Below are positions 4,567-50,516 of a stretch of DNA of 64,000 nucleotides, piece after piece. Each line of letters starts with the position of its first letter. The first letter of the stretch is position 1. A model generated the notes under the pieces. The model ran no database searches and was not told where the DNA came from. It saw only the letters and a list, made by a program, of their open reading frames with translations. The position numbers were made by a program, and so were the translations under genes. This DNA is from Terebella lapidaria (Eukaryota > Annelida > Polychaeta > Terebellida > Terebellidae): positions 17,571,402 to 17,635,401 of the forward strand of contig OX424567.1 of assembly GCA_949152475.1 (NCBI GenBank), in the 5' to 3' direction.

Positions 4567-5180
4567 ACCTATAATTAATGTATTTACTTTGTGATTGTAC
4601 AATACTGCTTATAATCAAGTAGTCATTTTGGTTTAATCTGTCGTTACCTCACCAAATAATTTCACGGCAAGTCATGCAAACATTCCACTTGCACTGATGT
4701 TCTTTAGTAATTTCAATGACTTACTCAATGTATAATTGTACAAATAATTATTAATTTGTTCATAACGGTATTAGGAGATTTATACCAAAATTGTTGACAG
4801 TAAGTTTGTGCAGTAAGACTTAGAAAGCGCAACTTGAACATCTGTTGAACCAGCCTCGTCCGGGTCGCTTTTTTATCCAAACCAGACCCTCGTATCAGCC
4901 GCATCACTCCTGAAATTTCAGGAGCGTAGGAACGAATTACCGCCGATCAAAACATTGTATGTTTGTGCTTCCGCACAAGAAAGATCTTAAAAATGACACA
5001 TAGTACATGTTATCTGTATCGAATGTGCCACATGAATGTATGTATATCCCATTGTTTTGTCCTTTGCACAGATTATCTGCGAAGTGTACGTAGCAGATGC
5101 CTGGGTTCGTTTTCTTTACAATTTGTTTTGAATGTAGCGTGCACGAGGCATGAACTACTTTTCAGTGCTATCCCAGAATC
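4567..5180. other. Non-coding stretch before the minisatellite
   Basis: I see nothing that supports a gene. An open frame starts at 4963 and runs into the minisatellite, but its non-repeat part has no recognisable features and is probably spurious. Confidence 0.4.
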
Positions 5181-5186
5181 CTGTGC

Positions 5187-6140
5187 GAGTGAGCACGAGT
5201 CGAGCGAGCACGAGCCGAGCGAGCACAAGCCATGCGAGCACGAGCCGAGCGAGCACGAGCCCAGTGAGCACGAGCCCAGTGAGCACGAGCCGTTGAGCAC
5301 GAGCCGTGTGAGCACGAGTCGAGTGAGCACGAGCCGAGTGAGCACGAGCCGAGTGAGCACGAGCCGAGTGAGCACGAGCCGAGTGAGCACGAGCCGAGTG
5401 AGCACGAGCCGAGTGAGCCGAGTGAGCACGGCCGAGTGAGCACGGCCGAGTGAGCACGAGCAGAGTGAGCACGAGCCGAGTGAGCCGTGTGAGCACGAGC
5501 CGTGTGAGCACGAGCCGTGTGAGCACGAGCCGTGTGAGCACGAGCCGAGTGAGCACGAGCCGAGTGAGCACGAGCCGAGTGAGCACGAGCCGTGTGAGCA
5601 CGAGCCGTGTGAGCACGAGCCGAGTGAGCACGAGCCGAGTGAGCACGAGCCGAGTGAGCACGGCCGAGTGAGCACGGCCGAGTGAGCACGAGCCGAGTGA
5701 GCACGGCCGAGTGAGCACGAGCCGAGTGAGCACGAGCCGAGTGAGCACGAGCCGAGTGAGCACGAGCCGAGTGAGCACGAGCCGAGTGAGCACGAGCCGA
5801 GTGAGCACGAGCCGAGTGAGCACGAGCCGAGTGAGCCGAGTGAGCACGGCCGAGTGAGCACGGCCGAGTGAGCACGAGCCGAGTGAGCACGAGCCGTGTG
5901 AGCACGAGCCGAGTGAGCACGAGCCGAGTGAGCACGAGCCGTGTGAGCACGAGCCGTGTGAGCACGAGCCGTGTGAGCACGAGCCGAGTGAGCACGAGCC
6001 GAGTGAGCACGAGCCGTGTGAGCACGAGCCGAGTGAACACGAGCCGTGTGAGCACGAGCCGAGTGAGCACGAGCCGAGTGAGCACGAGCCGAGTGAGCAC
6101 GAGCCGAGTGAGCACGAGCCGAGTGAGCACGAGCTGAGTA
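5187..6140. repeat. Minisatellite of a 15-bp unit
   Basis: Roughly 60 head-to-tail copies of 'GAGTGAGCACGAGCC'. Variants include GTGTGAGCACGAGCC, a 14-bp form (GAGTGAGCACGGCC) and short 9-bp units (GAGTGAGCC). The unit length is a multiple of three, so five of the six frames stay open over long distances. On the top strand these read (VSTSR)n or (SEHEP)n, and on the bottom strand (ARAHS)n, (LVLTR)n or (GSCSL)n. The 14-bp units shift the frame repeatedly, so long open frames here are a by-product of the repeat and not evidence of a protein. The left edge has older, more varied units (AGTCGAGC, AAGCCATGC), and the centre is the most uniform. Confidence 0.95.
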
Positions 6141-7199
6141 AGCTTCTGGTCGGGAAACTCGTTGATCACGCTGGTCAATCATGACGCATCCGAACATGGT
6201 TGACCGTGTTCTTATGATTAGATATATTTCCACCTTATTTTTGGATCGCCTGCGGGCGATTCATCGTTTTGTCCACCAGACGGCACTCTGAAGCACCCGT
6301 CTTTGTAATAACCGATTCTCTGGTCCCCTGAATCAGGGGACAGTGTCAATGCGCGGTAACAAAATAGTCCGTATTAATGCGCGTTTTGTAAACACGAGCA
6401 CGTGCTTTCTTGTTTTGCATGGGTCGACCCAGGGCCAGGGGTCGATCCGACAGTCATGACTCAGCCATGGATTTTTCAGAGGCACTAAAGATTGCCACGG
6501 ACACCGCTACTGGAGTTATTCTATCACAATCTCTTAAAAAATTGTATAGTTTTCGACAATATGTCCTGTCAGTAACAAAATATCCCAAACATTCAAATTT
6601 ATTTCGATTCATAGAGGCATCCATGTTGGAACTATTTTCGGTATCCCAGAATGCAAAGGACGAATTGTGTGAAAGACGGGTGCTGGAGCGCCACCTTTCG
6701 TGAAAACGGGCGATTCATTTGGATCAGCTTTCGCCATCTTGGATGTGACTTGGACGTGATCTGCGCCATCTTGGACGTGATTTGCGCGTTTGGTGATTTG
6801 CGGACTGTCGTTTCCCAATGATTTGCCCGTTGGTAATTTACGGACTGTGAGTTATTATTGAACATAGAATGAGCAGGTACGAAAGGCCGCAGCGATATCT
6901 ACTCGGCAAATCATAACGTCATATCATTGTCACATAGGCCCCTACATATATTACCGTACATATATATATATATACATATATACATATACATATATTCACC
7001 TTTAGGTGAAGTACATTTTTAGGGTTTCCCTATCTGTTTTCACTTTCTTCTTCCAGTCGGGAAACTCTTTCATCACGCTGGTCAATCGTGATGCATCTGA
7101 ACGTAATTAACCATGTTCATATGATTAGAGATTTCGGTCTTATTATTTTTTTAAACTATTCTTGTTTTTGAAAGTTGCAAGGTTCCGTCAGAGAAGTCA
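6141..7199. other. Spacer with a flanking direct repeat and a small orphan frame
   Basis: A segment of about 85 bases at 6142-6225 ('GGGAAACTC..TCACGCTGGTCAATC') is repeated in the same direction at 7047-7133. Between the copies is an open frame at 6410-6703 (97 aa, or 78 aa from the ATG at 6467). It has no recognisable domain. It is followed by short in-tandem phrases ('CATCTTGGACGTGAT', 'GATTTGCGGACTGT') at 6730-6850 and an AT microsatellite at 6958-6995. I do not claim a gene. Confidence 0.35.
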
Positions 7200-7449: not shown

Positions 7450-7688
7450 AGTTTAATATCATAATTACCTATACACTATTATTACCAGTATACAAGCGAT
7501 CATGTTTTCCCCCTTTGGGTACAAAATGTAACTGACTATTGGTGCGAAAATCTTCTATTGAACTGATATTGGCACAAAAACACTGTTTCTTCAAAATCAC
7601 CTACAAATATACCTGTGTTCTAAACAAAAATATGTTACAACAGAAATTATGCTCGATCAGATGGATAAATCAAGCATATACAGTACTA

Positions 7689-8324
7689 TACTCTGATTTT
7701 CCTAACTCGTTTACACCGTTTTTTGCTGATATTTTTGCGGTGTTTAATGGTATCGTATTGTAACTTGGCATACTTCACCTGGAGATCAAACGGCATTTTT
7801 CTGCAAACTTCCAAACTTCTGCTCATAGAACTGGGAGAGTTAGCAATCTACTGCAATGATAAATTTTCTCTGAAATGCTGTCGTTTGCATGTCAACAAAT
7901 ATTGTTTTCCTTTGGCACGTGATGGGCGATTCTGTTCCGATAATTTGCATAGGGGCGAGAGTTAGGATTCGGGACCGCCCACGTATGTAAAACTGATTCG
8001 AAATGACTCGCACGCGCAGGCACCTTGACGACAACTGACAACCCGACCCCCCTATCATGCCTAATTTGAACTTGTCCATTGGGATTTCGTCATCAGTTGT
8101 CGAGAACCAAGCAATATGTCGGCGCCCATGGTTCGAGCAAATCCTCGCTTGAATAAAACTTTTGTGTTTTGAAAAATACAGATAGCGTTCCGGAAGGCAG
8201 GTTTGTGTAAATTAATTGCCGTTTGTATCACAGGTATACAATATTCAGTTGAATAGTTCGCTCGAAGTACTTCGACTGAACTAAAGGCAAAAAACGGTGT
8301 AAACGAGTTTAAAAAATCAGAGTT
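7689..8324. repeat. MITE family 1, copy 1
   Basis: The left end reads 'TACTCTGATTTTCCTAACTC' and is preceded by TA. The right end carries the inverted counterpart ('GTGTAAACGAGTTTAAAAAA' then 'TCAGAGTTTA'). The interior also contains the family's inverted arm ('TTGCATACTTCACCTG...'-type on the left) but has diverged strongly in the middle. Compared with the clean copy at 25504-26059 this one is old. No coding capacity was seen. Confidence 0.7.
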
Positions 8325-8967
8325 TAGCAGCCGCTTTTCTTTTGTTTTGAGCGCCACTCAGAGTTACCTCTGACATGACCTATTTCACGCTCGATTGGCT
8401 CGAACATATATGCGAGTAAGATGGAATCGCAATGTATGAATGTGGCATCTGTTCGAAACTTCGGACATACAAGTCAAGATATATAACAAGTTTTCTTCAT
8501 TCGGTCAGATAAATATTTTTCCAAATAACTTTCTCCCAATATCACTTTAATCCCATGAAGTTCAGATTATCCAGAAGTTTATCTCAATAAAAACAGGCAG
8601 ATAGAATAGATTTTTACCAATCTACATAGCGTTATATTATACGTTCGTATATTTGCAAATAATGCAAGTGTATGTTCCAATCAGGAACATTGATATACCC
8701 AAGCGTCATTATCGACATCAATTCGCATGAATTCGCATGAATAACGTCGTCTTAATCTCCTTACGTATAATATTGAATCGTCACTTGTAAATATTTTAGC
8801 GGGCCACAACGCGTTGGATATCGTTACTGTCTTGAAACCAATGCTTGACGAGATTAGTGAACATGTATTAAACGTCGATCTATTCGATATGCCGTCAATA
8901 AAATCGATCACATTCATATTGATCAATCTCGGTTTGAAGACCATGACGATCCTTTTAGGAATAAAAA
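8325..8967. other. Upstream region of small membrane-protein gene A
   Basis: No other gene is visible. The last few hundred bases before ATG 8968 should hold the promoter and 5' leader of gene A. No classical TATA box could be singled out in this AT-rich sequence. Confidence 0.4.
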
Positions 8968-9872
8968 ATGGATAACAAAGCCATTGTTTCGCAAAACATC
9001 ACTGAAGGTAAGAGCTTCGTGCCAAATTGCCAATTCATAAATTCAGCTAAATGTGTTAGTAACCTCGATGTATACAAATGATGACGATGAACATTAACTT
9101 ATGTTTGTTTTATACCAGGCTATTGTGTTTTTTGTGTTGTATAAAATAACTCACAGTCGAATAGCAAAACTGTCATTTTGATCAAATTATTGCCAAACCG
9201 ATTCCAAACGTGTTTGTTTGGAATCTTATCTCTTTAAATACTTTTAAGTCACTTATCTCTTTAAATACTTTTATTTTATGCTTGTGTTTTGACAGTGACT
9301 CCAACAGAAGCTGAAGATTATTTTTTCACCCTCAGTGAGTACCAACTTGTCAAATTGTCAACATAAAAATTAAGACAAACAAGATACAGAGAGCCACATT
9401 ATTTTTGCAACATTTTGCAACATGAAATATACCCTTTATCTTCCACCAACACAGATGTCATATTGTACCTGGTGATTGGAGGTTTGGCCGTCCTCACAAT
9501 TCTGCTGTGCCTCATAAGCCGAATGGTCACCGCAACGTAGGTTTACCTCTGTTCATAAATTTCTGTTTATTCCTATTTATAATTTTTTCTTCATTTAAAA
9601 TCGCCGTTGTGAGCTCAAGTAAATTAATACTCAAACATAGATTGATGCTATTTTGATTAAACGCACTATCACCAAATTTCTTTGATTTATTTATTCATTT
9701 ATTTATTCATCTTTTTAGTTATTTCAGAACATGCAATAAGCGCCCAAAGGCCCCTGACAACCCATTCGAGGTGGTCATACCTCAGAGACCCGCGATAGAA
9801 GTGAAGGCGGCGACCGTGATGTTCAACAAGATAGAAGCAACTACTTCTGCTCAAATGTTAACACACTTGTAG
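8968..9872 (+). CDS. Small single-pass membrane protein A (four exons)
   Basis: I do not recognise the family by name. Four exons join in frame with GT-AG borders: 8968-9007, 9296-9334, 9455-9536 and 9719-9872, giving 104 residues. The N-terminus is short, acidic and lacks a signal peptide; it holds one N-glycosylation sequon (NIT). The TM segment, encoded by the 82-nt third exon, reads VILYLVIGGLAVLTILLCLI. It is followed by a basic stretch (FRTCNKRPK) and a cytoplasmic-looking tail ending in MLTHL. Intron phases are 1, 1, 2, identical to genes B, C and D nearby. AATAAA lies at 9928, 56 bases after the stop. Charge distribution suggests N-terminus outside and C-terminus inside. Function unknown; a receptor-tail adaptor or ion-transport modulator would fit the size but is a guess. 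Confidence 0.75.
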
Positions 9873-10872
9873 AAGATCGCGAATGATACATTAAACTAAT
9901 ACTGTTTGGATCAGAGCATGTCTTGAGAATAAAATAAACGCACCTATGCGGAGAAACCGATGTTTTTATTCGTCAATACTGATCACGTGAGCTGTATCCA
10001 TAGCTACATGTAATTCCGTCTGATAATTTATATTTACTAGATAAATCCAATAGCCATTGTCATTACAGTGTAATCGTATTTGAGGAAAACAAAAGATCAC
10101 ATTTTAATGTCATCAGTGAGAGAATATATAAATTACACAGTAGATCTAAGTTAACTGTTGAAGATTACGTCACTTCAGCAGCATGTATCGCCGATTTAAC
10201 ACTGAAAAATTCATTGAGTCATTAACTTTTATTCATTGAGTCATTAACTTTTATTCATTGAGTCATTAACTTTTATTCATTGAGTCATTACCTTTTATCC
10301 CGTTTATTTCATTACAATTACAAGTGCACCAATATTCGAGAAACACTCGAAATGCGAGAAAATAATCATGAATAATTTATGAATAATGGTTTGGCGAAAA
10401 TGATCAGCATTGTTTCAGCAACGCAATGTTACAATATACGAAAACACTTACGTGTTTTTGGTTGAAATTCTTGTGATAATTGAGTCATATCACAGGGCAT
10501 GGCATAAAATAATATACATAACTCACTTATTATTTACAGGTATATATAAGGCGACATTTCCTGTGACCTGAATGTCCTTGTTGTCACATATTTTCTAGGC
10601 ATATTCATCGCTTTATTTTCACGGACATGATGGATTCGTTTGTTTTTGTTATTGGTTTTGTTTGTTTGTTTTTCCTGATTGCATTTATCTGTCGCTGTGT
10701 TCGGCGTTCCTACAACGCCAACACATACGATCAATCAGAGAATGCTAACAATCAAATATAATTCCGATACTGTTATTGGTGCATTATGTTAGCTATTCAT
10801 GGCACGTCGGGGCATTATATACAATAAAATGCTGAACAAGATAGACCCATTTACAACTTATGATTTCACAAG
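9873..10872. other. Spacer between genes A and B with a 22-bp tandem repeat
   Basis: There are four head-to-tail copies of a 22-bp unit ('TCATTGAGTCATTAACTTTT' plus AT) at 10211-10299. The rest is AT-rich with no supported gene. A minus-strand frame at 10534-10734 contains lysine- and asparagine-rich low-complexity sequence and is not believed. Confidence 0.55.
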
Positions 10873-11825
10873 ATGGAGAGTTTACAGCTGACGACAGGTA
10901 ATTGGAACAGGGTGAGATAATATGCAACAAATAAGTTTAATACATACGGAGCCGCTGAGGCTCCGTTTACATATTATTGCGTTTATATCATTGCGTTCCC
11001 TCATCATTTCGTGTACTATTTTATACGATTACTATCGTTATGAAATTCACGTTGATTACCTTGGAAATAAATAGGAAACCCTGCATGCTGATGAGGTTTT
11101 CTAAGATTCTTGAATGTCTTTTTTCAGAATCTCCCAGCAAGCTGCCATCTTCGGAAAAACAATTGAAATTAACGCCTCGTAAGTGACATATTTTTTTACC
11201 ACGCATTTTTTCCACAATTCGCAACCAAAAAAATATATTATGTTAAAGTTTTATATTCCAATAGCTGTCTTAACGTCATGTTGCAATTAGCTGACTTTTT
11301 CAATAAAACCAAAACTTTTTTTTTTCCAGTGGACGAGTTTTGTGTGTTTCTCAGTGTGTTGGTTATCCTGACGATGTTGCTCATGAACGTTGATAAACTC
11401 ATTAAATGGTTTGTACTGTTATTTTACTATTTGATTATTATCATCACTTTTTCGATCGCTAATTGCACGGTCATTGTTGTAAAGGAATCCGTCAGAATTA
11501 TAGCCATATAATGAAATGAAATTTACACGAATTCTTATTTCTTTCACTGTGTTGTCTTTTTTCCTTAGTTAGGAGTTATTAGTTGAAAATGTTGATTTTT
11601 CATCCTCTCTGAGTTAGAAATTTTGATCGAGAATTCTTTTCGTTTTCAAGGATCTGTCGAAAGCGCCATCAAGCGGTGGAAACCATCACGGAGAGTGACG
11701 TAGAAGCGGAAAAGGACCCGGATATTTACACGAACAAAATGTCCGTCATCAACATTGACGGAAAAATCAGCGACTCCATGATGAAAAAGTCTCCGAGCTT
11801 CATCAGTAGCCAACTTAAACATTAA
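10873..11825 (+). CDS. Small single-pass membrane protein B (four exons)
   Basis: Second member of the small membrane-protein family. Exons are 10873-10897, 11128-11178, 11330-11408 and 11651-11825, in frame, 109 residues, intron phases 1, 1, 2. The N-terminal ~27 residues are polar (Ser/Thr/Lys) with no signal peptide. The TM exon (79 nt) encodes DEFCVFLSVLVILTMLL followed by MNVDKLIKW. Then come ICRKRHQ (basic, stop-transfer) and a tail rich in Asp, Glu and Ser. The MN-(V/I)-DK-(L/I)-(I/V)-K motif is shared with gene C, making B and C the closest pair. The nearest polyadenylation signal I see is AATAAA at 12303. Function unknown. Confidence 0.75.
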
Positions 11826-12430
11826 ATGGTGGGACTGAAGCTCCCCAGAACAACAGATACCTACCTCTAACTTCATGGAATTGCGCAACTGGCCAATTTG
11901 CATTTATTTATTTTGTGCTGTATTTGCATTTAATGTCATTATGAAATACATGTGTGAATTAATTTCGTTCCATTGTGCTGATAATATTTTATTTAGTAAT
12001 ATTTCATAGTGAATTTGATAGCATGTCCTCATACATATTTATACAATGAGATTGTTTTTTGTAAAAAAAAAAAAAAAATGCTCACATTTATCCGTTGGAA
12101 ACTATAATTTTGTACATGTACACAGTTCTCTACATTGAAATGTTTGCATTCTTATTTGCCTGTGAAAATTGAATGTTGAAAATTGTATACTGATGAATAG
12201 GGATTTATCGTAGTAATGATATCATTTATACATGTATGATATAATTATAATGCATTTATTATCCACTTCACTGTATAGTTTCGTGTCCCATGTAGTGTGA
12301 AAAATAAAGTTTGCATATTTACATATCTATAGAATCGTTCTCAAAGTTATTCATACTTTCTACCATCTCAATATTCACATGTATCTTAATATATGTTCAA
12401 CTAAAAGTCTATGCCATGACTAAAGGTCTA
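11826..12430. other. 3' flank of gene B
   Basis: Probably mostly the 3' untranslated region of gene B, up to the AATAAA at 12303-12308. There is an A-run at 12064-12078. No gene is seen. Confidence 0.4.
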
Positions 12431-13009
12431 TACTCTGATTTTTCCAACTCGTTTACACTGTTTTTAGCTGATATTTTTACGATGCTGAATGGTATAGTTT
12501 TATAACTTGGCATACTTCACCTCTGAGCTCTGAGTGAAACGGCAATTCTCTAATGAATTTCATACTTCTATCGTGAAAATTGAAAAAGTTAGCTATCTGT
12601 TCCAATGTTAAAATTAACCCAGTCATTGAATTTCGGGATTCGCACACAATTTTGTGCATTAGCTCGGTTTTATAGTGGAGCATTTTTTTCAAAATCAACA
12701 TGTTTGTGTAGGGTACAACCTAATGTGTCTTCTGGTCTAAAGCTACAACAATATTTCGAATCCTGATGGATGTAAGCAAGACCAAATCCTGCAATATACT
12801 CAGATTCTCGTGAGCCCGTTTTGGGCTGAAACACACATTGAGGTACATTGTAGATTGATAATTTCTTCAATTTTTGTGATAGTAGTCTGAACTTTGGTAG
12901 AAAATTGCCGTTTGATTCCCAGGTGAATAATGCAGTTATAGAACGATAACATTAAGCATCGCAAAATATCGTCAAAAAGCGGTGTAAACAAGTTAGAAAA
13001 ATCAAATTA
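12431..13009. repeat. MITE family 1, copy 2
   Basis: The left terminus 'TACTCTGATTTTTCCAACTC' follows TA. An inverted right arm ('GGTGTAAACAAGTTAGAAAA' then ATCAAATTA) closes the element. The arms extend inward ~200 bases ('TAACTTGGCATACTTCACCT' and its complement). The centre contains a 'CACATTGAGGTACATTGTAG' region that resembles its counterpart in copy 4. Non-coding. Confidence 0.8.
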
Positions 13010-13774
13010 GGGCCTACGTCAAATTATCAGTGTTTCCACTCAATTTCAGTATTATTTTGTGTTATTTACTAACGTCTCACGAAGCTACATTGCTTGAAAC
13101 AGAGAGGAGAGGAGTACCAAACCACTCTATAATGGAGTTCTGAGTCAAAGACGGTCAAATTATTTGACAAATAAATGACAATAGTAATAATACTATAGAT
13201 ATTTGTTTTTTGTTTTTTGTTTTTTTTTTTATTTTTTTTTTTTCATATATAACAGCTACATTAACTATAATAATGATAATAAAGCATGTTAGATGTAATA
13301 CATGTAAACTAGTAATTATCAGTACCCAGTTGCACGCCCTACGCGTGCAGGGCGTGTAGTTATTGTTAATTCACTGTGTTCTTCATTGCAAATTATCTCG
13401 TTTTAGTCTGTTCCTTTAGACATTTCGATTATTTTTGTTATATGAGGTTTTTTTCATAATCGCATTATCCTGCCAGCTTTTTGATATGTAGCCTACCACC
13501 CACGCACTTTGATATTATCGTGTCATGTTTTTTGTTTTGTCATCGACTATGCTTCGTTTGATGCCAACTACAATAGAAAGCAATTGGGTGCCATGAAAGT
13601 TTGTTTGGATTAATTAGAACTGTTGTTGATGTTATTAATGAAACAGGGAACAGTCTTTTTTGTTCAACTGCCAATACCGCTGTAATTACATATTCATAAC
13701 TGTCAAAACTCGTGGAGTTTGGGTATATATATCAAATGTGCACGATCGAAAATAATAATTCATTCTGCAGCAAA
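13010..13774. other. Upstream region of gene C
   Basis: T-runs at 13205-13243 and a short GC palindrome (GCCCTACGCGTGCAGGGC type) at about 13336-13354 are visible. No coding sequence is supported. The promoter of gene C should lie in the last few hundred bases; a TATATATA run sits at 13724-13731, about 45-50 bases before ATG 13775. Confidence 0.4.
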
Positions 13775-15073
13775 ATGGAGAAACACATTGAGGATATAGT
13801 CTTCCATTACGGTAAAAGTTATTGTTTATCATTATTCTTCACTATTATTCTACGATTACAAGTACTGGTAAAATAAGTGTCAGTTTGGCAAGATTTCTAA
13901 CCGATAGTTGAACTTTACAGAAGACACCACACCGCATGTAGATGTTACACAAACAAGGGCAACAGATATTCCGCGTTCATGTAAGTAAATGTATTTTATG
14001 ATCGGGAATGCCTGACTTCACAGGTATACTCTGATTTTTTGTCACCTCTATACATATGTATCTGTCCATAATTCAGTCACTGTAAAACGCGAGCATTTTA
14101 TTTCGTGAAAGGTACTCGCGAAATTAAAAAAACTCATGAACATTCAGCTGTCACGAAAAACAAGTGAACTCGGCTATATATACTGAAAGCTATTAAGATG
14201 TAACTTCCACCTGGGAGCCAGACGGTAATCTCCCAAAAAGTTTCAGTCTTTAGCCGGAAAACTCGAATAGTTGGCAATTAAGGACCAATGTTCTAGCCAA
14301 ATTCAAGAAATTCGCCGTTTGACTCCCAGGTGATGTAGGCCAAGTTATAACACAATACCATTCAGCATCGCAACAAAAAAAAAATTAGCCCAAGGATAAA
14401 GAAAGATTACCGGAATATGTACAGTTCAATAGGTTATCGGACCATAGGTTCGTAACCTGAAAAAAAAAACGATTTAAACGAGTTACTAAAAATCAAAGCA
14501 GGGTAAACACACCATCATTCTAATCATAAATTAATATAATTAGTTTCAAAGGTTCATATTTCCGTGACGTTGAATGGAACTGTGTCATAACGTGGCATTG
14601 CATACATCTTTTACAACACATGTAATGCATATGTTCCTGCCTTAAATTAGGATGTGTTTGACTTTTGTTTTCAGTAATAGAATTGTGTGTAGTTCTTGCT
14701 GTGGCGGCTGTTTTATTCGCTCTGTTGATGAACATTGACAAGATTGTTAAAAGGTAAGAGCATTTGTATTTTTTACGATTCTTAAAAAGGCCCAGGCGTA
14801 TGCACACCCTCTAAAAAAACTCAAACATTGTAAAGTAGTACACATTGTGAAATTGTAGAAATGCAGTTTAATATTTTTCATTGCAGAATTCGGCACAAGC
14901 GCTCTCGAAGTGATTCAAAGCTGGGTCATGACGTCACGATTCTTGAAGACCCGGATCGATCGAAATGCAAAGTACAAGTTGTTGGCGAGATTGGAACGAA
15001 ATACCCATCTATTTTGAAGAATTCCGATTTGATTCTAAATAACAATACATGTGAAAAAGGTGTACTGGTATAA
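13775..15073 (+). CDS. Small single-pass membrane protein C (four exons)
   Basis: Third member of the family. Exons are 13775-13811, 13921-13980, 14675-14753 and 14887-15073, in frame, 120 residues, intron phases 1, 1, 2. The N-terminus is acidic with no signal peptide. The 79-nt TM exon encodes IELCVVLAVAAVLFALL followed by MNIDKIVKR. Next comes a strongly basic IRHKRSRS patch. The tail is about 60 residues and ends in GVLV, which has the shape of a PDZ-binding terminus. Intron 2 was enlarged by a MITE (14027-14505). AATAAA is at 15166-15171. The next gene (D) converges on it tail to tail, with its own signal at 15241-15246 (TTTATT on the top strand), so the two transcripts need not overlap. 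Confidence 0.77.
14027..14505. repeat. MITE family 1, copy 3, inside intron 2 of gene C
   Basis: The left end 'TACTCTGATTTTTTGTCACC' follows TA. The right end is a decayed inverted copy ('AAACGAGTTACTAAAAATCA'). The middle retains 'CCAGACGGTAATCTCCCAAA' against 'CGCCGTTTGACTCCCAGGTG' as inverted arms. It lies wholly within the intron between the second exon and the TM exon of gene C and does not touch the splice sites. Confidence 0.7.
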
Positions 15074-15386
15074 CAAAGAGACAATTTGCAAGTGGAGAAA
15101 ATTGCATGTAATTCGACTAATTACTGATATTTTTAGGTTTTTGGGGAGTAACTAAAATCATGGGAAATAAAATTTGTTTGTGTGTTCTCGGTGATACCAT
15201 ACAAACAATAAACAATATACATGTTTATAAATGATGTTTTTTTATTATTACTAGTCACTTGAATAACTCACGATATACACTGTACACATAACGTAACATT
15301 ACTGGTTTGACACAATAACATTTTCAAGCGTGTGTAAAATAATGATAAATGTTAAAAGCTATTCAATGATTCAATTAAAATAATAA
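15074..15386. other. Convergent 3' ends of genes C and D
   Basis: Shared 3' region of two convergent genes. The plus-strand signal AATAAA is at 15166-15171 and the minus-strand signal (AATAAA read from the bottom strand) is at 15241-15246. No other feature is seen. Confidence 0.5.
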
Positions 15387-16072
15387 TCAATCCTGATCAT
15401 CAGTTATCCGATTTTGTCGCCAGGAATAATCCACGCGGTTGTTTTTCCTGAAATAGAAACATCTTTCACACGGCAATGTGGTGAATAAATAAAAGTAGTG
15501 ACTCGCACTTAGTATGCACTGCACAATATACATTGAAAGAAATAACATGTATACATAATACTGAATTACTGTACGTACTTGACCATGTAATATTTGACGC
15601 CTCCCATGATTATGGTCGCAAGGCACATCACGGCAATCAATGCGTACAAGCCATACACTGAAATACAAACAAATTTCAATATTTTCCACAATGTGAAAAG
15701 CATCTCGCATCAAATTATTTCGTGTCAATTACATGTTCAATTAATTGACATATCCATACACTAGATAGGCAAGTTAGAATGTTATAACTGCAAATGAATA
15801 CTAGATTTTTTCGACTTCTGATTCATGTGAATTTTGAATATATTCCGTCCACTTACACAGATGGGTTTTATCGAAAGATGAGTCCGACGCGTCTGGATCT
15901 CCCGTAGTCAAGGGGTCAGTGATATTGTAAACTGTATAATTAAAATGAATGATGATGTCACATTGAATAAAATTAACAATAACAACAATTACTCTGTTTG
16001 ATAATAACAAAATAGCCCAACAAATATATAGATTGTTTTTTTTAAATCAGGCTCACCTGTCCCGTTTGACAT
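15387..16072 (-). CDS. Small single-pass membrane protein D (four exons)
   Basis: Fourth member, on the opposite strand. Exons from 5' to 3' are 16057-16072, 15857-15931, 15579-15657 and 15387-15447, in frame, 76 residues, intron phases 1, 1, 2. The first exon is only 16 nt and encodes MSNGT plus one base. The N-terminal segment carries two sequons (NGT, NIT) and is acidic, as expected for a luminal or extracellular side. The 79-nt TM exon encodes LYALIAVMCLATIIMGGV. The short tail is basic then acidic (KNNR... to DDQD). The exon-intron plan, not the sequence, ties it to genes A-C. Confidence 0.72.
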
Positions 16073-17701: not shown

Positions 17702-20700
17702 TCAGTACTCCAGGCAGGTGACTGTGACAGTCGGGCTGGAGTGCCAGTCGTTGTTGCTGTCGGCCTCCTCCCAGCCTCCTGTCGCCGCGTCCGGGTTAAG
17801 GTTGTCAGTCACCCAGCGGGTCCCTATCGGGGGGGGCGGGGGTGGCATGAAGGAATGATTAAGGCGATTTGTTTTTTTATTTTTTGGTTTACGAACGATG
17901 GATGAAAAAATGTTTGGTCGGAGGGAGGAATGAAAATAAAAATAAAATTGATTCAAATGTAGTGTCGGGGAAAATAAAATCTTTGAAGAGTATAAATTAT
18001 GCTTAAAAGCATAAATCAGGAATAATGAACAGTTTTTTTTTTATTATAAATGCACAAAAACAAAAAATGTTCTTTTGTTTCAAAGCAAAAGTAACACCTC
18101 GTGAATACGCCTGATGCAAACTCAAAAAGATTTAGCTCCTTTCAACATTTTAAAATTTCCACATGAAAAAAATTGCTATCGGAGGAAATAAAAAAAAAAT
18201 CTCAATTTTATTTTTATTGTCAAAACAGAAAATTTAGGGTCGGAGGGTTTGTAAACCAAGAAATAAAAAATAAATCGCCTAACGGACGAAATGCAGTGCA
18301 ATTTTTTTTTTAATTTATATTTACCTTCTTTTCACACGTCAATTACCAATATTGTTGAGTGAAGTAACGTTTATAGGACAAATGCAAATTACAAGAATCG
18401 AAACTGAAAAATGAAACACGCTTTGCATGGCCGTAGTTTCGTTTTGCCCTTACCGAATCAACTTGAATTTTTTACGTCCTAATTGGGTGTCGAGCAATTT
18501 TTACCATTTTTCAGTTAGACTTCTAGCTTCAAAATTAAAATTTTAATTTCAAAGCAGTCAAGAATGAGATATCCCATAAATTCCATTGAATCCACAGGCA
18601 TTTCGTCATGTTTATGCCCCTACGGAATAAACCTATTGTGGTGATTCTGCGTCAGAAGACATTCTGGAGTATTTCAAGTAAATACACTATTTAAAATATA
18701 GTCAGCCCAAGTAGTTTATGCGATCGTATGATCAAGTGATCATATATGAAATATACTTGTAATCATAACGTTGTGATAGTAATTTGCTGGGTGAACCTAC
18801 CGAAGAAAAGGCTGCAAGGCACGGCTCCTGCGAGCCACGAGCTCTCCTCCGAGTAGTAATACAGGTAGACATAATTAAGCACGTCGCTCAGGTATACAGG
18901 GAGCAGTTCGCCGTGAGGTCCCGCACACGTCATGTCCGGTACCAGCGTGTATGTGCCGGGTACGAACGGCCGCTGAGTTGACAACGTGACGCCCGCTATC
19001 TCATAACGCTGGCAGACTGGTGGAAGGGAAAAAGTTAGTGTTGGCGTTTGTTATTTTTGTGCATATGATGAATGAAGCATTCAATTTTTTAAAGACTTAG
19101 GGCGAAGTTTGCCCCCGAAACCCCGTAAGTCTAAACAACGAGACATTCTGCTCAAAATCTACCATCGTGTGAAAATAACAGTCCTGTGTCTCTTGAAAAA
19201 GTTATATATATTCAGTTCGGCGATATTGTTACTATTATAACAAACGAATGTATTATTTCGATCGTTGGACCACTGACCTTTAGGCTTATAGCACCACATG
19301 GTTTTGCGCTTTCTCGGTGCACAGCAGGCTCCCATACACATGCACTCGTGGTTCGAGACGCCCTTCCAGCCTCCGTTCTCACGGAGGGAGTTCGCTAAGA
19401 GGGGCTCACACACTGGTTTGTGTGCGTATGGGGGGGGGGGAGGGGGTAAATGGTTCTATAAGGGTATTTGGGTAGTTTATCTCAATTTTTGAGTAGTTTA
19501 TCTTGATTTTTTTTCCATTGTCTTGTGGGTGTTTTTTTTATTATTATTTTCTATGTACTTTACTTACGTTGAGATTTTTTGCGCAAAACATCTGTAAAAA
19601 AACAAACAAACAATAATTGCGTTAGTTGATATTTTCTTCGCTGATATATTTCAGTATTGTTTACAATTTCAGGATATCCAATGATGTACCTTAGCAAAAA
19701 AAACCTAAATATCGGTTTGAAATGATTCGGGAACATTTGAGTCTTTTGTTTCTATGCTATATGCCTACCCGCAAACTTAAGATAACAAACTCCATAGGTT
19801 TTGAATTCTGTATTCAAACATGCGGATTATATTGGCATGTCTTTGTTTTTGTAATATTAACTGCACCCTCGGCCCTAGGCACTAGGCTGCAGACTTGGAG
19901 CTCGATATGTTTTGGATTTGCGTATGATCACGAATTAGGCCTGCGTGCAGACTTTTTGAATCACTTGGCGCAAGGTAAGCTTTGAATTTCGTATTATCCT
20001 CTGACTTTTCGAAACACTTGGAACTCGGTAAGTTTTTAATATCGTACTATCGTACTACCGTACTACAGCAGACATTTTAAAACACGTGGCGCTCGGAACG
20101 TCGGTGTTTTTTATATAATCTGTAGTTTTTTTTAAAGAAATCCGAGCCTTTTTAAAACACTTGGGTCGATAGGTTCCGGTTTCTATATTATTACCTGTAG
20201 TCTTTTTAAAACACTTGGGGCTCGGTACGTCATGGTTTCTGTACTCCCAGCAACAGCCTTCCGTCAGGCAAGATTCCCTGTCGGAGAAGGACACACCCTC
20301 CATACATTTTTCTCTATCCTCTGGGAAAATCGAGCATTCGCAACCTGCCAAATAAAAATGTAACAAAATTTGAACGGGATAAAAACTGAACCAACACACA
20401 ATCTTTACCTTAGATGTTGTGTGTGTGTGTGTGTTTTGATCGTACTGTTTGCAAATATTTGTATTTATTAATTGTATCATTGATTCCCGATTTGTCATGT
20501 ATTGAACATGTTTAGTGCAAGTTGTATTCGCTGCGGTTAGCCGTAAACAATATTTTTTTGCAAAATATTTCATAACATTGATCATGAATCAACAAATCAA
20601 CGCATTTGTAAAATGTTGATGGAGAATAAGCATTGTGAAACTGACCTGAGATACAGTTCACTTCGTCTTTTCCGTCCGGGCACTGTTCCGTTCCGTCACA

Positions 20701-41119: not shown

Positions 41120-41992
41120 CTATATCCAATCGCTGAAGCCGTCACTCTGTCTGTCATATTCCGGTTTCCCACTAGAAGAATAGTCCGTGTATCTCAGCAC
41201 GTATCGAAACTGTCGCTTCTCGCCCCTGCAATACAAAAAAAAAAAACATTTGTCCTTGGACATGGGCGTGTTTATATACACATTATGTACTTGGCATTTC
41301 ATTCAATGTACTTAAATTAATGCTGTTCTATTATGGTATGACAAAAATATTTTGGCTAGAACGTGCTGTGGATCTGTTCAAAGATCGCATTATGATTTCA
41401 CAATTTTGAAAAAAGAGAGATATAATTCATGATAGAATAAAGTTGATTTATATGACTTATTTATGATTTATGTTATCATTTACTGGAAGGTTAGTGTCAT
41501 ACTTAGGTTCTGATATGTAGTAAACGAGTCGAGCCAATCCAATGGCTATTAATATGGCACCCGCCGCGAAAATTACTATGGCAACTGAAAAATAAAGATC
41601 GATTGGGTTGAATATACACGAAAATGCAATTTTTATATATACACAAGACACAAAAATGGCACGAAATTTTCATCAATTATTAGTAAATTTATCAATTGAA
41701 ATATTTGTTTTTTATTTCCCTCACCAACAAGCAATGGATCTGGGGTGGTGTCGGAGAGCGGCGAATGAAAAAGTTTGTCGTTGTCATCAATACCACCAGA
41801 CGGCGCTCCGGTCGCAATCCCGTTATCCACCGCGGCAGTGACGTCATCACGTTGCCTAAGATACCCGGTCACGTGGTTCTCCAGAGACGCCAACAACGTC
41901 TGATTCAACGCCTGGACGTCGAAACGAGGCTCGTGAGCTGTGTGCCTAATCACTGACGCCGGAACTACTTTCGTGGTGGAGTTATCATCCAT
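41120..41992 (-). CDS. Small single-pass membrane protein E (three exons)
   Basis: Distant fifth member of the small membrane-protein family. Exons are 41725-41992, 41503-41584 and 41120-41225, giving 151 residues in frame. The TM exon is 82 nt, entered by a phase-1 intron and left by a phase-2 intron, exactly as in genes A-D. The first exon combines what are two exons in A-D and encodes an acidic ~89-residue N-terminus with sequons (NST, NQT) and no signal peptide. The TM segment is AIVIFAAGAILIAIGLA. The tail begins basic (GEKRQFRYVLRY) and ends SDWI, again a possible PDZ-type end. If the second donor (AA|GTATGA) is not used, the exon reads on to a stop at 41457 with an alternative tail (KYDTNLPVND...), so two C-termini are possible. 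Confidence 0.68.
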
Positions 41993-44436
41993 TTTTCAAT
42001 GTTGATTTCTATAATTTCTGACATGGTTATCTATAAATGTTTTCATAAATGTATCCAACACAAGTCCAAGTCCAGATGGTATTGCTTCGCGTCAGAAAGT
42101 GTAACCCGTCGAATCATATTAGTAATTTATGAAGTGCGACTGTCGCCTCCATGCAGTCATACGTAACACCTGTAAGAAAACAAAATGAGACAAAAATCAA
42201 CATTTGGTCGTTCAGGGAGATGTTATCACCAATTACCTGGGGGAATACATTGTATGTAAACATTTATAACACACAATTATTGATCATTAGCTCTTTGTAT
42301 GTGATATATCTTCCGCATAACATCTGGTTAGGTATGTTGGTGATCGAGATGTTTTGTGCCTTTAGCAAATTATGTTGTGTTATTATATTACATTTCTCAC
42401 AAACCCATCTGTACATATGTTTTCGTGTCTTTTATTATGCCTGTCGATCGGCATAATGGTACATTCAACCACTCGTACATCTAAACGAATGAAGTTTCTT
42501 TTGACATCTTTCATAATGAATATATATGTATTGTAGATGAGTAATCACATTTAGGGAATGATTGGCCTAAACTATTGGCCTTATTATCATAATATATGTA
42601 GAGTAACTGCGTGCAAGCGCATTTAATATCAAACCTTTCAGCATGTCCAAAGAAAAGCAAAACTGATACTTTCATATCTACTACATGTGGGTGATGATTA
42701 GTACAATACATGCACATGTATTTCTATCGTCTGCCGAAACAACCCTTACATAGGCCTACATGTAAATTTACATTATATTTCTCCACGTTTTCGACGCTTT
42801 TACGTCTTTCCACGCTTCTCTTTGGAAACTTTGTGATGGGTGATTTGTTTTCTATAAAGAGTAGGCTTACTTAACAGATTTGAACAATAGGGGAGAGAAA
42901 TCACATGGACCTTGTTATCATCCATACAATTTTGCAAATACTGTGTGTAAATATCCCATTAATTGTGCTATTTCGTTTCAAACATAATACACTGTAATTA
43001 CATATTCCTCCCCTGGTATGGAACATTATACAAGTACATAGCATATTTAGTACATCTATAAGGAAATTAACCACAACAAAATCAAAGCATACATCGAAAC
43101 ACTTTTACCCATACAATATGCAGCAAAATTCAAAACTCAGTTCCACCGCTATGCATTCTTTCATCTTTTTTCATCTTTTTCTTCTCTGCCATATTTCAGC
43201 CACAAGACGGGTGATTCTGAGCATTCACAAGGCCGTAAAAGATACGGCAATTGCCTGTGACCTTACACATAACGGATTCATCCTCATCTTTTTAGCTGTT
43301 ATCTGATTGGTCAAGTGTTGCCTGGAAATTTGCTCAAAGGGCGGATCTGTTTGGAAGAGGCGGATCCGGGGAGGGGGTGATGTGGCATATACGTTGGAAT
43401 AAGTAAAGTATTGAAACTTATTATCCCTCAGTAGATCCTTCAGTAGATAATGATTTCTAGGTCAGTTCAGTTTGTGACATGAGTATAAATATAGATTAGA
43501 ACTTTGTTAAATCACACGTCCTTCCTTCTCATAGGGCTCATAAATCGATAAGAATCAACGAATAAGAAAAAAATTGCAACATAACCACACTAAAGAAAAT
43601 AGTTTATAAAATATCACAGAATCAGATTCGCAACAAACATAAAAGTTACCATTTGGACTTTTCAGGATGCATAACATTCAATTCAGAGATTATTTTCGGC
43701 AACAGAAGAATAAACGAATTTTCATCATGTTTTGTAATATTTCACTGAAAAAAATACTAATAATATGCCTTTTCCCAATACATCATACAAAGTGGTGTTT
43801 CGAAAATGACAACCTGAAAAACGAGATTTTGGGATGGGGGTGTTTATCCGAATAAGATCCGCTCTTTTTTAAGAACAAAAACTTCCTACTTTTGTTTGGT
43901 GCAACAATCACTTCACAATAGCACTTGTTCACAAGTTGGCGAAAACCGCTGGGAAGTTCACAATTCGGACATTTGCTGGTACTTTAGAGCAGGTTTCTGC
44001 GCAGATAAAAACTTTCAAACCTACTATACTCGATTTTGTGCCAAACGAAATTTCGCACGGAAGTGTGCATTCTTAGGATGATCTCGTGATATTTATTGAT
44101 ATCGAATAATAGGATTGTCTCTCTATATTGGTGAGTATGCACAGTGAAGATATACGCAGGATATATGCTCACATGCATATACTGACAAAAATCATCTATA
44201 CCTCGTATGATATTTTGAATTATATGCGTGAAAAATTGGTCAGAAATGATATTTTGAATTATATGCATGAAAAATTGGTCAGAAATGATAATCGATTGTA
44301 TTGTAAATACTGTTTGGTGCTTCATGTTTCCTTGAGAGAGGTGGGCGTTGTAAGAAAATATATATAAATGTATAATCCATCAATGATAAACAACAGAAAT
44401 CCGCCTCGATTTTCATCGACATAAACACTCGATAAT
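41993..44436. other. Non-coding stretch before the Mab-21-like gene
   Basis: AT-rich with no supported gene. A direct repeat 'GATATTTTGAATTATATGC' plus 'TGAAAAATTGGTCAGAAAT' occurs twice at 44207-44290. Upstream exons of the Mab-21-like gene could be hidden here but I found none. Confidence 0.4.
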
Positions 44437-46170
44437 TTGTCTACAACATTTTTTCGTTATTACTCGTATCACTACTCGGTAAATTTTGCACTACCCAGAC
44501 TATCCGTCACCCCTACCCCAGGCACGATGACGTTCCCAGGCCCGGGGAGACCCCACTGGTTCACCGTCCTAGACGACATGGCCGTGTGGAAGATGCGAGA
44601 TTCCCTGCTCACTTTGGACGAGGAGTCGAGGGTCAACCCGTATGATCCCGAGGTCAAACGGATCCAGATCGGCGCGGAGAAGATCATCAAAGAAATGATT
44701 AGGAACGTTTGCAGGGAAGACGGGAGATTCGGCGGGCGTCTAATCGAGATGGGAAGTTATTATAACCAGACTAAGATAGGCAAACCAGACGCGTTCGATT
44801 TCGGACTCGAGTTGCGACTTAGTGACGTAGCACGGGAACCACAGCCCGGGGATAATTTGGAGTGGTTGTGGAGGGCTGACGGTTTCATGGCGGAGATTAA
44901 GAGGACATTCGAGAGGCTGATGAACGAGGTCATGGAGAAGACGGCGATGCCATCGAACTGGTCGCATGGAGGGTTCAACGAGCCTCGGTACAGTGGTTTC
45001 CGCAGGAATGGACCAGCCAGTGTGCTGCAGTTCGCCTACAAGGACCCCGTTACGGATAGAGACACGCACTTGATGGTTCAGTTGTACATCATCGTGAAGG
45101 TTCCTTTCAGTAGTCTCAGCTTGCAAGATCGTTTTCCAATCTTCTGCTACTCCAGAACAAGCTTGAAACTCAACTACAGACTGTACAAGTTCTCGCTGCT
45201 TGACTATTTCCAGGCACAACGTACTGAGTATATTCACCTGCCCATCTGGCTCGGACAGCCTCCAAGCTACGTGGAGATGGTGCTCTATGCAATATCCGTC
45301 GTCGAGCAAAAGTGGCTGAATCAGTTCAGCGCTATGGCAGTCCCCAAGCGAGTGATAAGAATCTGTCGCGCACTTGTCGCTCGCTTTCTCACCGTCACCT
45401 CCAAGCATATTCGGTCCTCACTCCCGCGTCGGGTGCGAAAGTCGCTAGACGCCATCTACTTGAAGATGGAGAAGTGCCGTAAGTTTACCAATGGAGTGAT
45501 CGGGTTTAAACACTTGGGTGATCCTTCAAGGTGTGAGAACGGCAGTCGCACTCCCCTTCTCTCCTACGGGGAAGTCGAGTTGGACCTCGAGGCCGTCCGC
45601 CGCTACAACTTCCAGCGCCCAAGTGGCCACAGCTTCGTCGACTTGAACGAGTTGGTTCAGGCCTCGCCGCTTTTTTCATCCCACCTCTTCCGCCACATCG
45701 TCCTTACGATGATGTCCACTGAACGTCAACATGGCCGCGAATGGCGAACGGATGACGTTCCACGCTTAGTCGTCCACGTGTTCGACGTCATCCACGACCA
45801 TTTAAACGACGACAACTCTTGGCTGCAAGTGGGCCCCACCTGCATTGAGTATAACGACACATGCTCTCGTGGGTTCGCAGGGCTTCTCCTTAGGAACGAC
45901 CTCTACTCGACCTCAACCCGACGGCGTCAGCTGCTACTCCTAGTGGAGGTTCTACGCGAGATGGCTCACACCAATAGCGGACGTGTGCTCCCGTACAAGC
46001 CGCTGCGACACGGGGCGGGTTGTACGCCTGTACGCCGCGCTTGTACGCAGAGCGTCCACCTGGTGTACTGCCTCTGTCTGGTCTGGGGATACCTGCTCTG
46101 GGCGCTCGTCTGGACCTGGAGAAGCCGCCGAGTTCGAGTCACCGCCGCAGTCAGGAACCACCGCGAGTGA
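44437..46170 (+). CDS. Mab-21/cGAS-like nucleotidyltransferase-fold protein with C-terminal TM
   Basis: One open frame of 577 residues. The conserved part starts only at ATG 44527 (TFPGPGRPHWF), which follows a pyrimidine-rich tract ending CCCCAG, so a splice acceptor just before it is likely and the mature protein is probably 547 residues; numbering here uses that start. The Mab-21 signature is present: GSYYNQTKIGKPDAFDF from 76, GPASVLQF near 163, and a helical C-terminal half. In active cGAS-like enzymes the metal ligands are E-x-D after the GS loop and a later D. Here they read A89-F-D91 and Q185, so two of three are gone and catalysis is unlikely. A 22-residue hydrophobic segment (VHLVYCLCLVWGYLLWALVW) at about 510-531, followed by Arg residues, would anchor the protein by its tail. 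Base composition is clearly richer in G+C than the flanks. Confidence 0.85.
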   Translation: MSTTFFRYYSYHYSVNFALPRLSVTPTPGTMTFPGPGRPHWFTVLDDMAVWKMRDSLLTLDEESRVNPYDPEVKRIQIGAEKIIKEMIRNVCREDGRFGGRLIEMGSYYNQTKIGKPDAFDFGLELRLSDVAREPQPGDNLEWLWRADGFMAEIKRTFERLMNEVMEKTAMPSNWSHGGFNEPRYSGFRRNGPASVLQFAYKDPVTDRDTHLMVQLYIIVKVPFSSLSLQDRFPIFCYSRTSLKLNYRLYKFSLLDYFQAQRTEYIHLPIWLGQPPSYVEMVLYAISVVEQKWLNQFSAMAVPKRVIRICRALVARFLTVTSKHIRSSLPRRVRKSLDAIYLKMEKCRKFTNGVIGFKHLGDPSRCENGSRTPLLSYGEVELDLEAVRRYNFQRPSGHSFVDLNELVQASPLFSSHLFRHIVLTMMSTERQHGREWRTDDVPRLVVHVFDVIHDHLNDDNSWLQVGPTCIEYNDTCSRGFAGLLLRNDLYSTSTRRRQLLLLVEVLREMAHTNSGRVLPYKPLRHGAGCTPVRRACTQSVHLVYCLCLVWGYLLWALVWTWRSRRVRVTAAVRNHRE

Positions 46171-48947: not shown

Positions 48948-50516
48948 ATGTTGCCACAAGACTCATTCCTTCGCTCTGCTCACGGAGACTTTTCCAAGTT
49001 TGTAGCCGATGAGTTAAGGCCATCTACAGAATTCAACCAACTATTGGGAGAAGGAATTGCTGCGGTTGCCAAATTCCTCCATCATCAAACCCGGTACAGT
49101 GTCAAGGAAGTCGTTAAGGTCAGCTGTCATTTTTAGATTAGCCCTTTGGGAGTTTCAGTAATGCATATTTTAAACATTTTTAAAACTCCATTTTTATATC
49201 AAGTGTGTGTATATTTCACAACTAAATTATGAATATTATAATGATTCACTCTATCCTGATAATGAAAATATACAATCATGTCACTTGGGGAACAGGGTGG
49301 TAGTGCGGGAAAAGGCACCACCGTCAAGGGAAAATCTGACGTCGACGTCGTCATTTTCTTGAACGACTTCCGAAACGCCGGCGACTTCCGGCAGAAAATC
49401 GCACAAGTCATCAGCGATTTGAAGCAAGCTTTGTCGCAGTTTGGACGCCATGAGGGCCACAGTATCACTGGGCTTAAGTCGACCAGATTCAGTGTGCAAT
49501 TCGCACTGAAGGCGAAGGGGATGGCGCAAGCAGTTGATATCGATTTGCTGCCTGCCTTCGACAATCTTGGAGTTAGAGGTTGGCAGCAGCAACAACAAAC
49601 ATTAATGCACCTTAAATAATGCACCATGGGGACACACCATCATGGCATTATTAACTTTCCTTTTAAATTCTCGGGGTTTTTTTTTTTCAGGCAAAGCCCA
49701 AACATACCAAGACATGTTACATGCAAGCGACGATGACAAAGAATATTACTCGGCCTCTCTGAGTCCTCTCCAGATAGACTTCATCAAGACACGGGCCACA
49801 TTGGTCAAAGATTTGATCCGACTGGTTAAATATTGGAGAAAAACACACTTTGAGGTTCGCTGAATCCCTGTGCGGTGCACTGCACTCTCAAAGTAGAGTA
49901 AGCTTTTATTAATACCCAACGAATGTTGACGTCGTTGAATGTTGAATCTTATAAATCAGGTCAGGCTTAGTTCTGGGAGTCTTCCATCCTCCTACCCTCT
50001 GGAGCTGATTGTGATTAGATGCTGGGAGAATGCTGGGCGACCACAGAGCTTCAACCTCGCTAAGGGGCTGAAGGTTGTCCTGGAAACTCTGGCAAACAAC
50101 ACTGCCATAGACATGACATGGGGTGACAACTATAATATCCACTCATTCCACGCAGCCATCACTGGTCTGAGAGGCGAAGCCAACAGAAAACGCATGTGGG
50201 TAGCTTTTGCTTTGAGTAATTAGAAATCGCTCATTTGGATTTGTGATTCTTGGATTCGTAAGATATATAGATATATAGCCTACTATCATATCGAAAAGTA
50301 GATGCTACCAACACTGGCAACCAACACCACGTTAATTCTATCAAATCATGTTTGCTTTTGTTTCTGTCTAGTCCCTTCATTTTGGACCCTGCCAGTCCTT
50401 TCCGTAACACCGCCGCGAGGTTTGGAGCCTGGGGGGAGGTGGCCCAAGTTGCTAGGGAGAGCGCCGACAGCCCATGTCTGAGGAATATCAGCTCCTACAG
50501 ACACAGCTGGGCTTGA
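48948..50516 (+). CDS. 2'-5'-oligoadenylate synthase, single-unit
   Basis: Five exons, 48948-49118, 49296-49578, 49691-49854, 49960-50195 and 50372-50516, join in frame to 332 residues. That is close to one OAS unit (about 345-400 in vertebrates). OAS enzymes sense double-stranded RNA and polymerise ATP into 2'-5' oligoadenylate. The active site is intact: GGSAGKGT (58-65), the first two metal ligands in KSDVDVVIF (D72, D74), and the third in IDLLPAFD (D140). The second half matches the OAS C-terminal domain: LVKYWRK, SYPLELIVIRCWENAG, DPASPFRNTA. The exon 2 donor (GTTGGC) is weaker than usual. There is no myristoylation signal or C-terminal CaaX-like motif (it ends RHSWA). A polyadenylation AATAAA is at 50980, inside a palindrome. 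RNase L is not expected in invertebrates, so its downstream pathway is open. Confidence 0.95.

What the first reader, a model, noticed from the sequence alone, without database searches (positions are those of the whole stretch)
8968..16072. Cluster of four (with gene E, five) tiny membrane-protein genes sharing one exon plan but almost no sequence
Genes A, B, C and D are all built from four exons with intron phases 1, 1, 2. The third exon is always the TM exon and is 82, 79, 79 and 79 nt long. Gene E at 41.1-42.0 kb has the same TM exon (82 nt, phases 1 and 2). Sequence identity is visible only between B and C (MN-[VI]-DK-[LI]-[IV]-K after the TM helix). All lack signal peptides, have acidic, sometimes glycosylatable N-termini, and have a basic patch just after the TM. 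Exon structure conserved far beyond sequence suggests an old, fast-evolving, locally expanding family. I know no named family with this plan.
Basis: partly seen in the sequence, partly recalled or inferred. Interest (0 to 1): 0.78.

Follow-up and report, generated by a model that had tools for sequence, protein, structure and literature searches.

The report
Worm cluster of tiny membrane proteins
Four neighbouring worm genes appear to make tiny one-helix membrane proteins that share one exon layout although only two of the four still clearly resemble each other in sequence; they look like real genes of an unnamed, fast-changing family whose function is still a guess.

Summary
Genes A-D rebuild as four-exon genes with intron phases 1, 1, 2 and membrane-helix (TM) exons of 82, 79, 79 and 79 nt. 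Codon use is coding-like in A, B, D and E, not significantly in C; C is supported by homology to B, with replacements held back. A scan of 264 kb finds six phase 1->2 TM exons of 70-91 nt; four are A-D, within 7.1 kb (cut-offs chosen after seeing the genes). Gene E is weaker: three exons, a poor donor, no sequence link. Only B-C similarity is secure; A-B is marginal (3 of 400 shuffles), the other pairs among A-E not significant. No Pfam family reaches its cut-off. The genome is annelid by mitochondrial gene order. Best reading: an orphan tandem family of N-out/C-in single-helix proteins, perhaps accessory subunits working like KCNE or FXYD proteins without being members; function is inferred from anatomy alone. 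B also resembles intronless single-helix ORFs on another chromosome at a borderline level, which a profile comparison does not support.

The parts
8968..9007 (+). gene A exon 1 (40 nt, ends phase 1)
   Evidence: in-frame stop upstream with one codon between; start context AAAATGG
9296..9334 (+). gene A exon 2 (39 nt, phases 1-1)
   Evidence: open only in phase 1; codon use 363/1000, no signal
9455..9536 (+). gene A TM exon (82 nt, phases 1-2)
   Evidence: codon use 0/1000; also open in phase 2
9719..9872 (+). gene A exon 4, tail and stop (104 aa protein)
   Evidence: codon use 0/1000
10873..10897 (+). gene B exon 1 (25 nt); TATATA 57 nt upstream of ATG
11128..11178 (+). gene B exon 2 (51 nt, phases 1-1)
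   Evidence: also open in phase 2; codon use 256/1000, no signal
11330..11408 (+). gene B TM exon (79 nt, phases 1-2)
   Evidence: codon use 0/1000
11651..11825 (+). gene B exon 4 (109 aa protein)
   Evidence: codon use 0/1000
13775..13811 (+). gene C exon 1 (37 nt); TATATA 51 nt upstream of ATG
13921..13980 (+). gene C exon 2 (60 nt, phases 1-1)
   Evidence: also open in phase 2; codon use not coding-like, 739/1000
14675..14753 (+). gene C TM exon (79 nt, phases 1-2), homologous to that of B
   Evidence: codon use 167/1000, not significant
14887..15073 (+). gene C exon 4 (120 aa protein), homologous to that of B
   Evidence: B4-C4 4/2000 shuffles; codon use 90/1000
16057..16072 (-). gene D exon 1 (16 nt); in-frame stop upstream with five codons between
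15857..15931 (-). gene D exon 2 (75 nt, phases 1-1, donor GTAAGT)
   Evidence: open only in phase 1; codon use 1/1000
15579..15657 (-). gene D TM exon (79 nt, phases 1-2)
   Evidence: codon use 0/1000; also open in phase 2
15387..15447 (-). gene D exon 4 (76 aa protein)
   Evidence: codon use 107/1000, not significant
41725..41992 (-). gene E exon 1 (268 nt, ends phase 1); doubtful family member
   Evidence: codon use 0/1000
41503..41584 (-). gene E TM exon (82 nt, phases 1-2, donor GTATGA)
   Evidence: codon use 156/1000, not significant
41120..41225 (-). gene E last exon (151 aa protein)
   Evidence: phase-2 frame 0/1000, phase-0 frame 32/1000

Best explanation
A, B, C and D are four separate genes for small single-helix membrane proteins, N-terminus outside and C-terminus inside, without a cleaved signal peptide. 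They descend from one ancestral four-exon gene by local duplication and have diverged until mainly the exon plan still shows it. Shown: the gene models as open, spliceable frames, coding-like codon use in A, B and D, the B-C kinship and the constraint on B/C. Inferred: topology, common descent of A and D with B/C (about 0.65), and membership of E (about 0.35). Most likely mechanism, inferred from anatomy alone (about 0.25): each protein is a lateral accessory subunit. Its helix would pack against a larger channel, transporter or receptor, the basic stretch just inside the membrane (after MN-x-DK in B and C) would bind the partner or acidic lipids, and the variable tails would set specificity, as KCNE and FXYD proteins do.
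For: Models and phases. Codon use. Clustering of the TM-exon type. B-C homology and purifying selection. Charges that fit N-out/C-in by the positive-inside rule. An AATAAA within 500 nt downstream of each stop (B's at 477) and TATA boxes before B and C. The gene upstream of D (LDLa and trefoil exons) reads by eye into its own last exon with a stop at 17702, so D is probably a separate unit.
Against: Sequence comparisons of A, D and E with the rest are marginal or negative. Exon lengths and phases are few characters and were picked by eye first. C fails the codon test (48/500). No transcript data. No partner gene was recognised nearby (one search covered 10 stretches of the window only), and by eye no motif is common to all the tails.
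Confidence: 0.5

Rival explanations
1. Only B and C are a family. A, D and E are unrelated small orphan genes that happen to share a common layout, because an extracellular phase-1 intron followed by a TM exon is frequent in animal genes (recalled).
For: A-C 23/400, A-D 35/400, B-D 90/400, C-D 177/400, and E against A-D 121 to 340/400 shuffles reach the observed score. Of the 12 TM-exon loci outside the cluster, 2 are phase 1->2, so the phase pair alone is not rare.
Against: Four such exons within 7.1 kb, with lengths 79 or 82, each preceded by a phase 1-1 exon and a phase-1 first exon. By my own rough arithmetic, counting B/C as one and taking 2/12 for the phases and 2 of 8 possible lengths, chance agreement of A and D is about 0.002; the base rates are crude.
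Confidence: 0.3
2. The TM and tail exons are the 3' ends of modular receptors, or remnants of them: a phase 1-1 exon followed by a phase 1-2 TM exon is what is left after ectodomain loss, and some may still be spliced to upstream ectodomain exons.
For: A secreted-type gene with LDLa and trefoil exons lies upstream of D on the same strand; by eye its junctions are phase 1, so its donors could in frame reach exon 2 of D.
Against: That gene reads by eye into its own last exon with a stop. D exon 1 is preceded by an in-frame stop with no AG between. B and C have their own TATA boxes.
Confidence: 0.15
3. The models are not genes: open frames with splice-like borders by chance.
For: Exons 1 and 2 are very short. 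C and several single exons fail the codon test. No transcripts could be checked.
Against: Codon use of A, B, D and E 0/500 each; B-C replacement constraint; clustering far above resampled sequence.
Confidence: 0.04

Closest known systems
KCNE (MinK) family of K+ channel accessory subunits, Pfam PF02060
   Same: Small, single helix, N-out/C-in, no signal peptide, glycosylatable N-tail, basic juxtamembrane stretch (family features recalled).
   Different: No Pfam match of A-E listed at E up to 10 (HMMER's filters drop most matches above about 0.1); coding region split into four exons, whereas vertebrate KCNE coding regions are, as recalled, a single exon.
FXYD family of Na,K-ATPase regulators, Pfam PF02038
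   Same: Small single-helix proteins from many small exons, basic after the helix (recalled).
   Different: No FXYD motif by eye, no Pfam match of A-E; no match over the cut-off in this genome, searched exon by exon.
Transmembrane adaptor proteins of lymphocytes (LAT, LST1 and similar)
   Same: Short N-tail, no signal peptide, single helix, cytosolic tail (recalled).
   Different: No repeated tyrosine motifs or CxxC palmitoylation site in A-D by eye; no Pfam match over a cut-off.
Intronless single-helix ORF cluster of the same genome, C11:18.83-18.94 Mb
   Same: No signal peptide by eye, glycosylatable N-tail in most, one helix, basic stretch; B aligns with one subgroup through helix and tail.
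   Different: ORFs uninterrupted; match of B is E 0.5 genome-wide and a profile-profile comparison gives probability 0.4%; C does not match (308/400), A only weakly (10/400).

Membership tests
KCNE (PF02060) | sequence match to the family profile | tested here: not met
   0 of 5 proteins (A-E) listed a PF02060 match at E up to 10 in Pfam-A (filters drop most matches above about 0.1); genome-wide 2 weak hits, best 21.2 bits with five stops, cut-off 22.1
KCNE (PF02060) | single helix, N-out/C-in, short | tested here: inconclusive
   hydropathy and charge fit in 5 of 5; topology by rule only, not measured or predicted by a dedicated program
KCNE (PF02060) | modulates a Kv channel | not testable with these tools
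   needs expression and electrophysiology
FXYD (PF02038) | FXYD motif and profile match | tested here: not met
   0 of 5 in Pfam-A; 13 weak genome hits, best 17.9 bits, cut-off 26.9
Family of B and C | significant pairwise similarity | tested here: met
   B-C 3e-11 for one comparison, 0/400 shuffles
Family of B and C | A, D and E belong by sequence | tested here: inconclusive
   A-B 3/400; the other pairs among A-E not significant
Family of B and C | A and D belong by exon plan (phases 1, 1, 2; TM exon 79-82 nt) | tested here: met
Family of B and C | E belongs by exon plan | tested here: inconclusive
   three exons only; 82-nt TM exon with weak donor and alternatives
Intronless C11 cluster | homology to B/C by profile | tested here: not met
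   hhalign probability 0.4%, against B-K1 tail 0/5000 shuffles after genome-wide selection

The most novel reading that the evidence does not exclude
An annelid-specific superfamily of KCNE/FXYD-like accessory subunits in which exon plan and topology have outlived all sequence likeness, and which has also seeded, through a retrocopied B-like mRNA, the intronless single-helix cluster on C11.
Probability: 0.12. Interest if true: 0.65.

Novelty: new variant of a known kind. Interest (0 to 1): 0.42.

Why it matters
If right, the cluster is a clean case where intron phases reveal kinship that sequence search misses. Proteins this small and fast-changing are easily left out of annotation. If they prove to be accessory subunits, annelids evolved their own set of the single-helix regulators known from vertebrates.

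Tried and rejected
Pfam with A-E and the 44-aa ORF: nothing over a cut-off. A, C and E list no family; B lists Melittin (0.097); D lists six, best TMEM132_C (0.0035), all below their cut-offs; I read them as short helix matches. Solved structures: the B/C profile lists three chains; the top one (k-cTRP5, 3.4e-4 for the whole sequence) is a sum of five stretches of 3.8-3.9 bits, and the CD28 and GABA-B hits are weak helix matches; D has one hit at 0.18, A none, the C11 profile none below 1. E was not searched there, B and C only as a profile. Own-genome searches with A, C, D and E returned their own exons plus, for A (1) and C (2), hits at E above 4. B and C did not find each other in these searches, so paralogues as diverged as that would be missed and 'single locus in the genome' cannot be claimed. 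Splicing of D to the LDLa/trefoil gene was considered and judged unlikely. The longer repeats around the genes look like MITE-like palindromes, not duplicated gene pieces. Literature searches: KCNE with invertebrate and amphioxus gave one unrelated paper by listing; KCNE single-pass invertebrate intron, FXYD intron phase, and annelid orphan transmembrane gave none; annelid single-pass lineage-specific gave 7 listings, none relevant by title. (hemichordate assemblies, listing only) was a wrong lead on the organism.

Full report
Where it lies. The window is part of contig C14 of a 761.6-Mb genome in 438 contigs. On contig C438, which carries cox1, the order reads nad3, nad2, cox1, cox2, atp8, cox3 (genes other than cox1 named by eye from their translations). 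Passages of PMC2639372 state that in annelids nad3 lies between nad1 and nad2 and atp6 lies between cob and nad5, whereas in the sipunculid Sipunculus nudus nad3 lies elsewhere. A cox3 directly after atp8, and nad3 next to nad2, fit that. I take the organism to be an annelid; the species was not identified.

The observation. I rebuilt the five genes from the sequence. A (104 aa), B (109 aa) and C (120 aa) on the plus strand and D (76 aa) on the minus strand each have four exons with intron phases 1, 1, 2 and TM exons of 82, 79, 79 and 79 nt. E (151 aa, minus strand, about 25 kb away) has three exons with phases 1 and 2 and an 82-nt TM exon. The TM exons are open in phase 1 in all five, in B, C and E in that phase alone, in A and D also in phase 2; the hydrophobic reading is the phase-1 one. 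Exon 4 of A-D is open over its whole length only in phase 2. I had set its end at the stop of that frame, so this is not independent proof: as a last exon, other phases would give shorter tails of 6 to 42 codons. Codon use supports the phase-2 frame of exon 4 in A, B and E (0/1000 each), not significantly in C (90/1000) and D (107/1000).

Are they genes? With codon preferences taken from four neighbouring stretches that I judged coding (two of them with Pfam matches over the cut-off), synonymous codon choice in A, B, D and E exceeds all of 500 simulations made from local intron composition. C does not (48/500), nor does the 44-aa ORF X (42/500). Exon by exon, the significant ones are the TM and last exons of A and B, exons 2 and 3 of D, and the first and last exons of E; C exon 1 is borderline (29/1000), and the other exons carry no significant signal. 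C is supported another way: it aligns with B over 72 residues at 38% identity, and over 79 aligned codons synonymous sites are saturated (pS 0.77) while replacements lag (pN 0.45), most clearly in the TM exon part (0.84 versus 0.32). Start contexts are good by eye. An AATAAA lies within 500 nt of each stop; TATA boxes precede B and C but were not found within 200 nt of A, D or E.

More than chance? A splice-site and hydropathy scan of 264 kb (the window plus 100 kb on each side, both strands) for TM exons of 70-91 nt found 16 merged loci in any phase and 6 with phases 1->2. Four of the 6 are A-D, within 7.1 kb. Thirty first-order Markov resamples of the cluster averaged 0.03 such loci; three of the 264 kb gave 0, 1 and 0. 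The cut-offs were chosen after the genes were known, so this is a description with a yardstick rather than a blind test. E's exon is missed at these cut-offs because of its donor and appears only under relaxed ones, among some forty other relaxed entries.

Kinship. Shuffles within N-tail, helix exon and C-tail give B-C 0/400 and A-B 3/400. A-C (23/400), A-D (35/400), B-D (90/400), C-D (177/400) and the pairs with E (121 to 340/400) are not significant. Tails alone: B-C 4/2000, A-B 473/2000, A-C 917/2000, D-E 1273/2000, A-E 1680/2000. Common descent of A and D with B/C therefore rests on plan, position and topology.

Relatives elsewhere in the genome. Six-frame searches with A, C, D and E returned their own exons and, for A and C, hits at E above 4. 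B returned its own exons, three near-identical ORFs on C11 at E 0.5, 0.54 and 2.8, and one hit at 4.6. Searched with one of these C11 proteins, the genome gives 15 matches, 12 of them between 18.83 and 18.94 Mb on C11 (two of the 12 may be pieces of one gene; six of the 12 have E between 0.28 and 2.5). I read 9 single-helix ORFs there, each uninterrupted, and aligned 6 of the 9. B aligns with the first subgroup through helix and tail (score 78, 0/400; tail alone 55, 0/5000), but that pair was picked from a whole-genome search. A gives 10/400 with it, C nothing (308/400), two other cluster members nothing with B (71/400 and 59/400), and the profile comparison gives 0.4%. I leave this as an open lead. 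B and C did not retrieve each other, so these searches cannot exclude further paralogues.

What it is not. Pfam-A has no match over a cut-off for A-E, so the KCNE and FXYD families are not met by profile. Their profiles find nothing over the cut-off in the whole genome either, searched exon by exon. Solved structures give no credible relative for the B/C profile, A or D. A tail stretch of A (NPFEVVI) recalls the post-helix motif of KCNE proteins; that is a memory, not a test.

How it may work. Acidic N-tails and basic post-helix stretches point to an N-out/C-in single helix without a cleaved leader. The best-kept part of B and C is the end of the helix and the MN-x-DK stretch just inside the membrane (pN 0.27 against pS 0.69 over 17 codons), where a lateral partner or acidic lipid would be met. 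That is the anatomy of accessory subunits such as KCNE and FXYD. I rate this function at about 0.25, since no partner, expression site or common tail motif supports it.

Verdict. The cluster is real as far as sequence can show and the layout is shared. Its unity as one family is likely but not proven, E is doubtful, and function is open. It is an orphan family of a familiar architectural kind. Its main interest is that intron phases seem to outlast sequence.

Noticed in passing
G000:C11:18.831-18.944 Mb (L016-L018, L045-L050): Twelve matches of an apparently intronless single-helix family in about 112 kb; 9 ORFs read. No signal peptide by eye; 6 of the 9 have CK..C after the helix and tails ending VTVL, VTAV or VTKL.
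   Followed up: partly
window 10627-10761 +: A 44-aa single-exon ORF with one helix between A and B, TATATA 86 nt upstream and AATAAA 61 nt downstream, one match (itself) in the genome; codon use not significant (42/500).
   Followed up: partly
window 22729-17702 -: By eye a multi-exon gene starting with a signal-peptide-like exon and carrying LDLa and trefoil exons (both Pfam over cut-off), with its own last exon before D.
   Followed up: partly
window 38592-37884 -: Two exons that together read as a two-helix small membrane protein (sequence); only a sub-threshold Claudin_2 hit.
   Followed up: no
window 7686-8327, 12428-13009, 14208-14494: Three related palindromic MITE-like repeats; the third lies inside intron 2 of gene C.
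   Followed up: no
window 44425-46170 + and 49266-49619 +: A 581-aa open frame that looks by eye like a Mab21/cGAS-like protein but has no Pfam match at 0.1, and an OAS-like nucleotidyltransferase stretch (NTP_transf_2 over cut-off) 3 kb further.
   Followed up: no
window 5073-6260: Long run of SEHEP-like repeated peptide units, open in several frames on both strands (by eye, no repeat finder run there).
   Followed up: no
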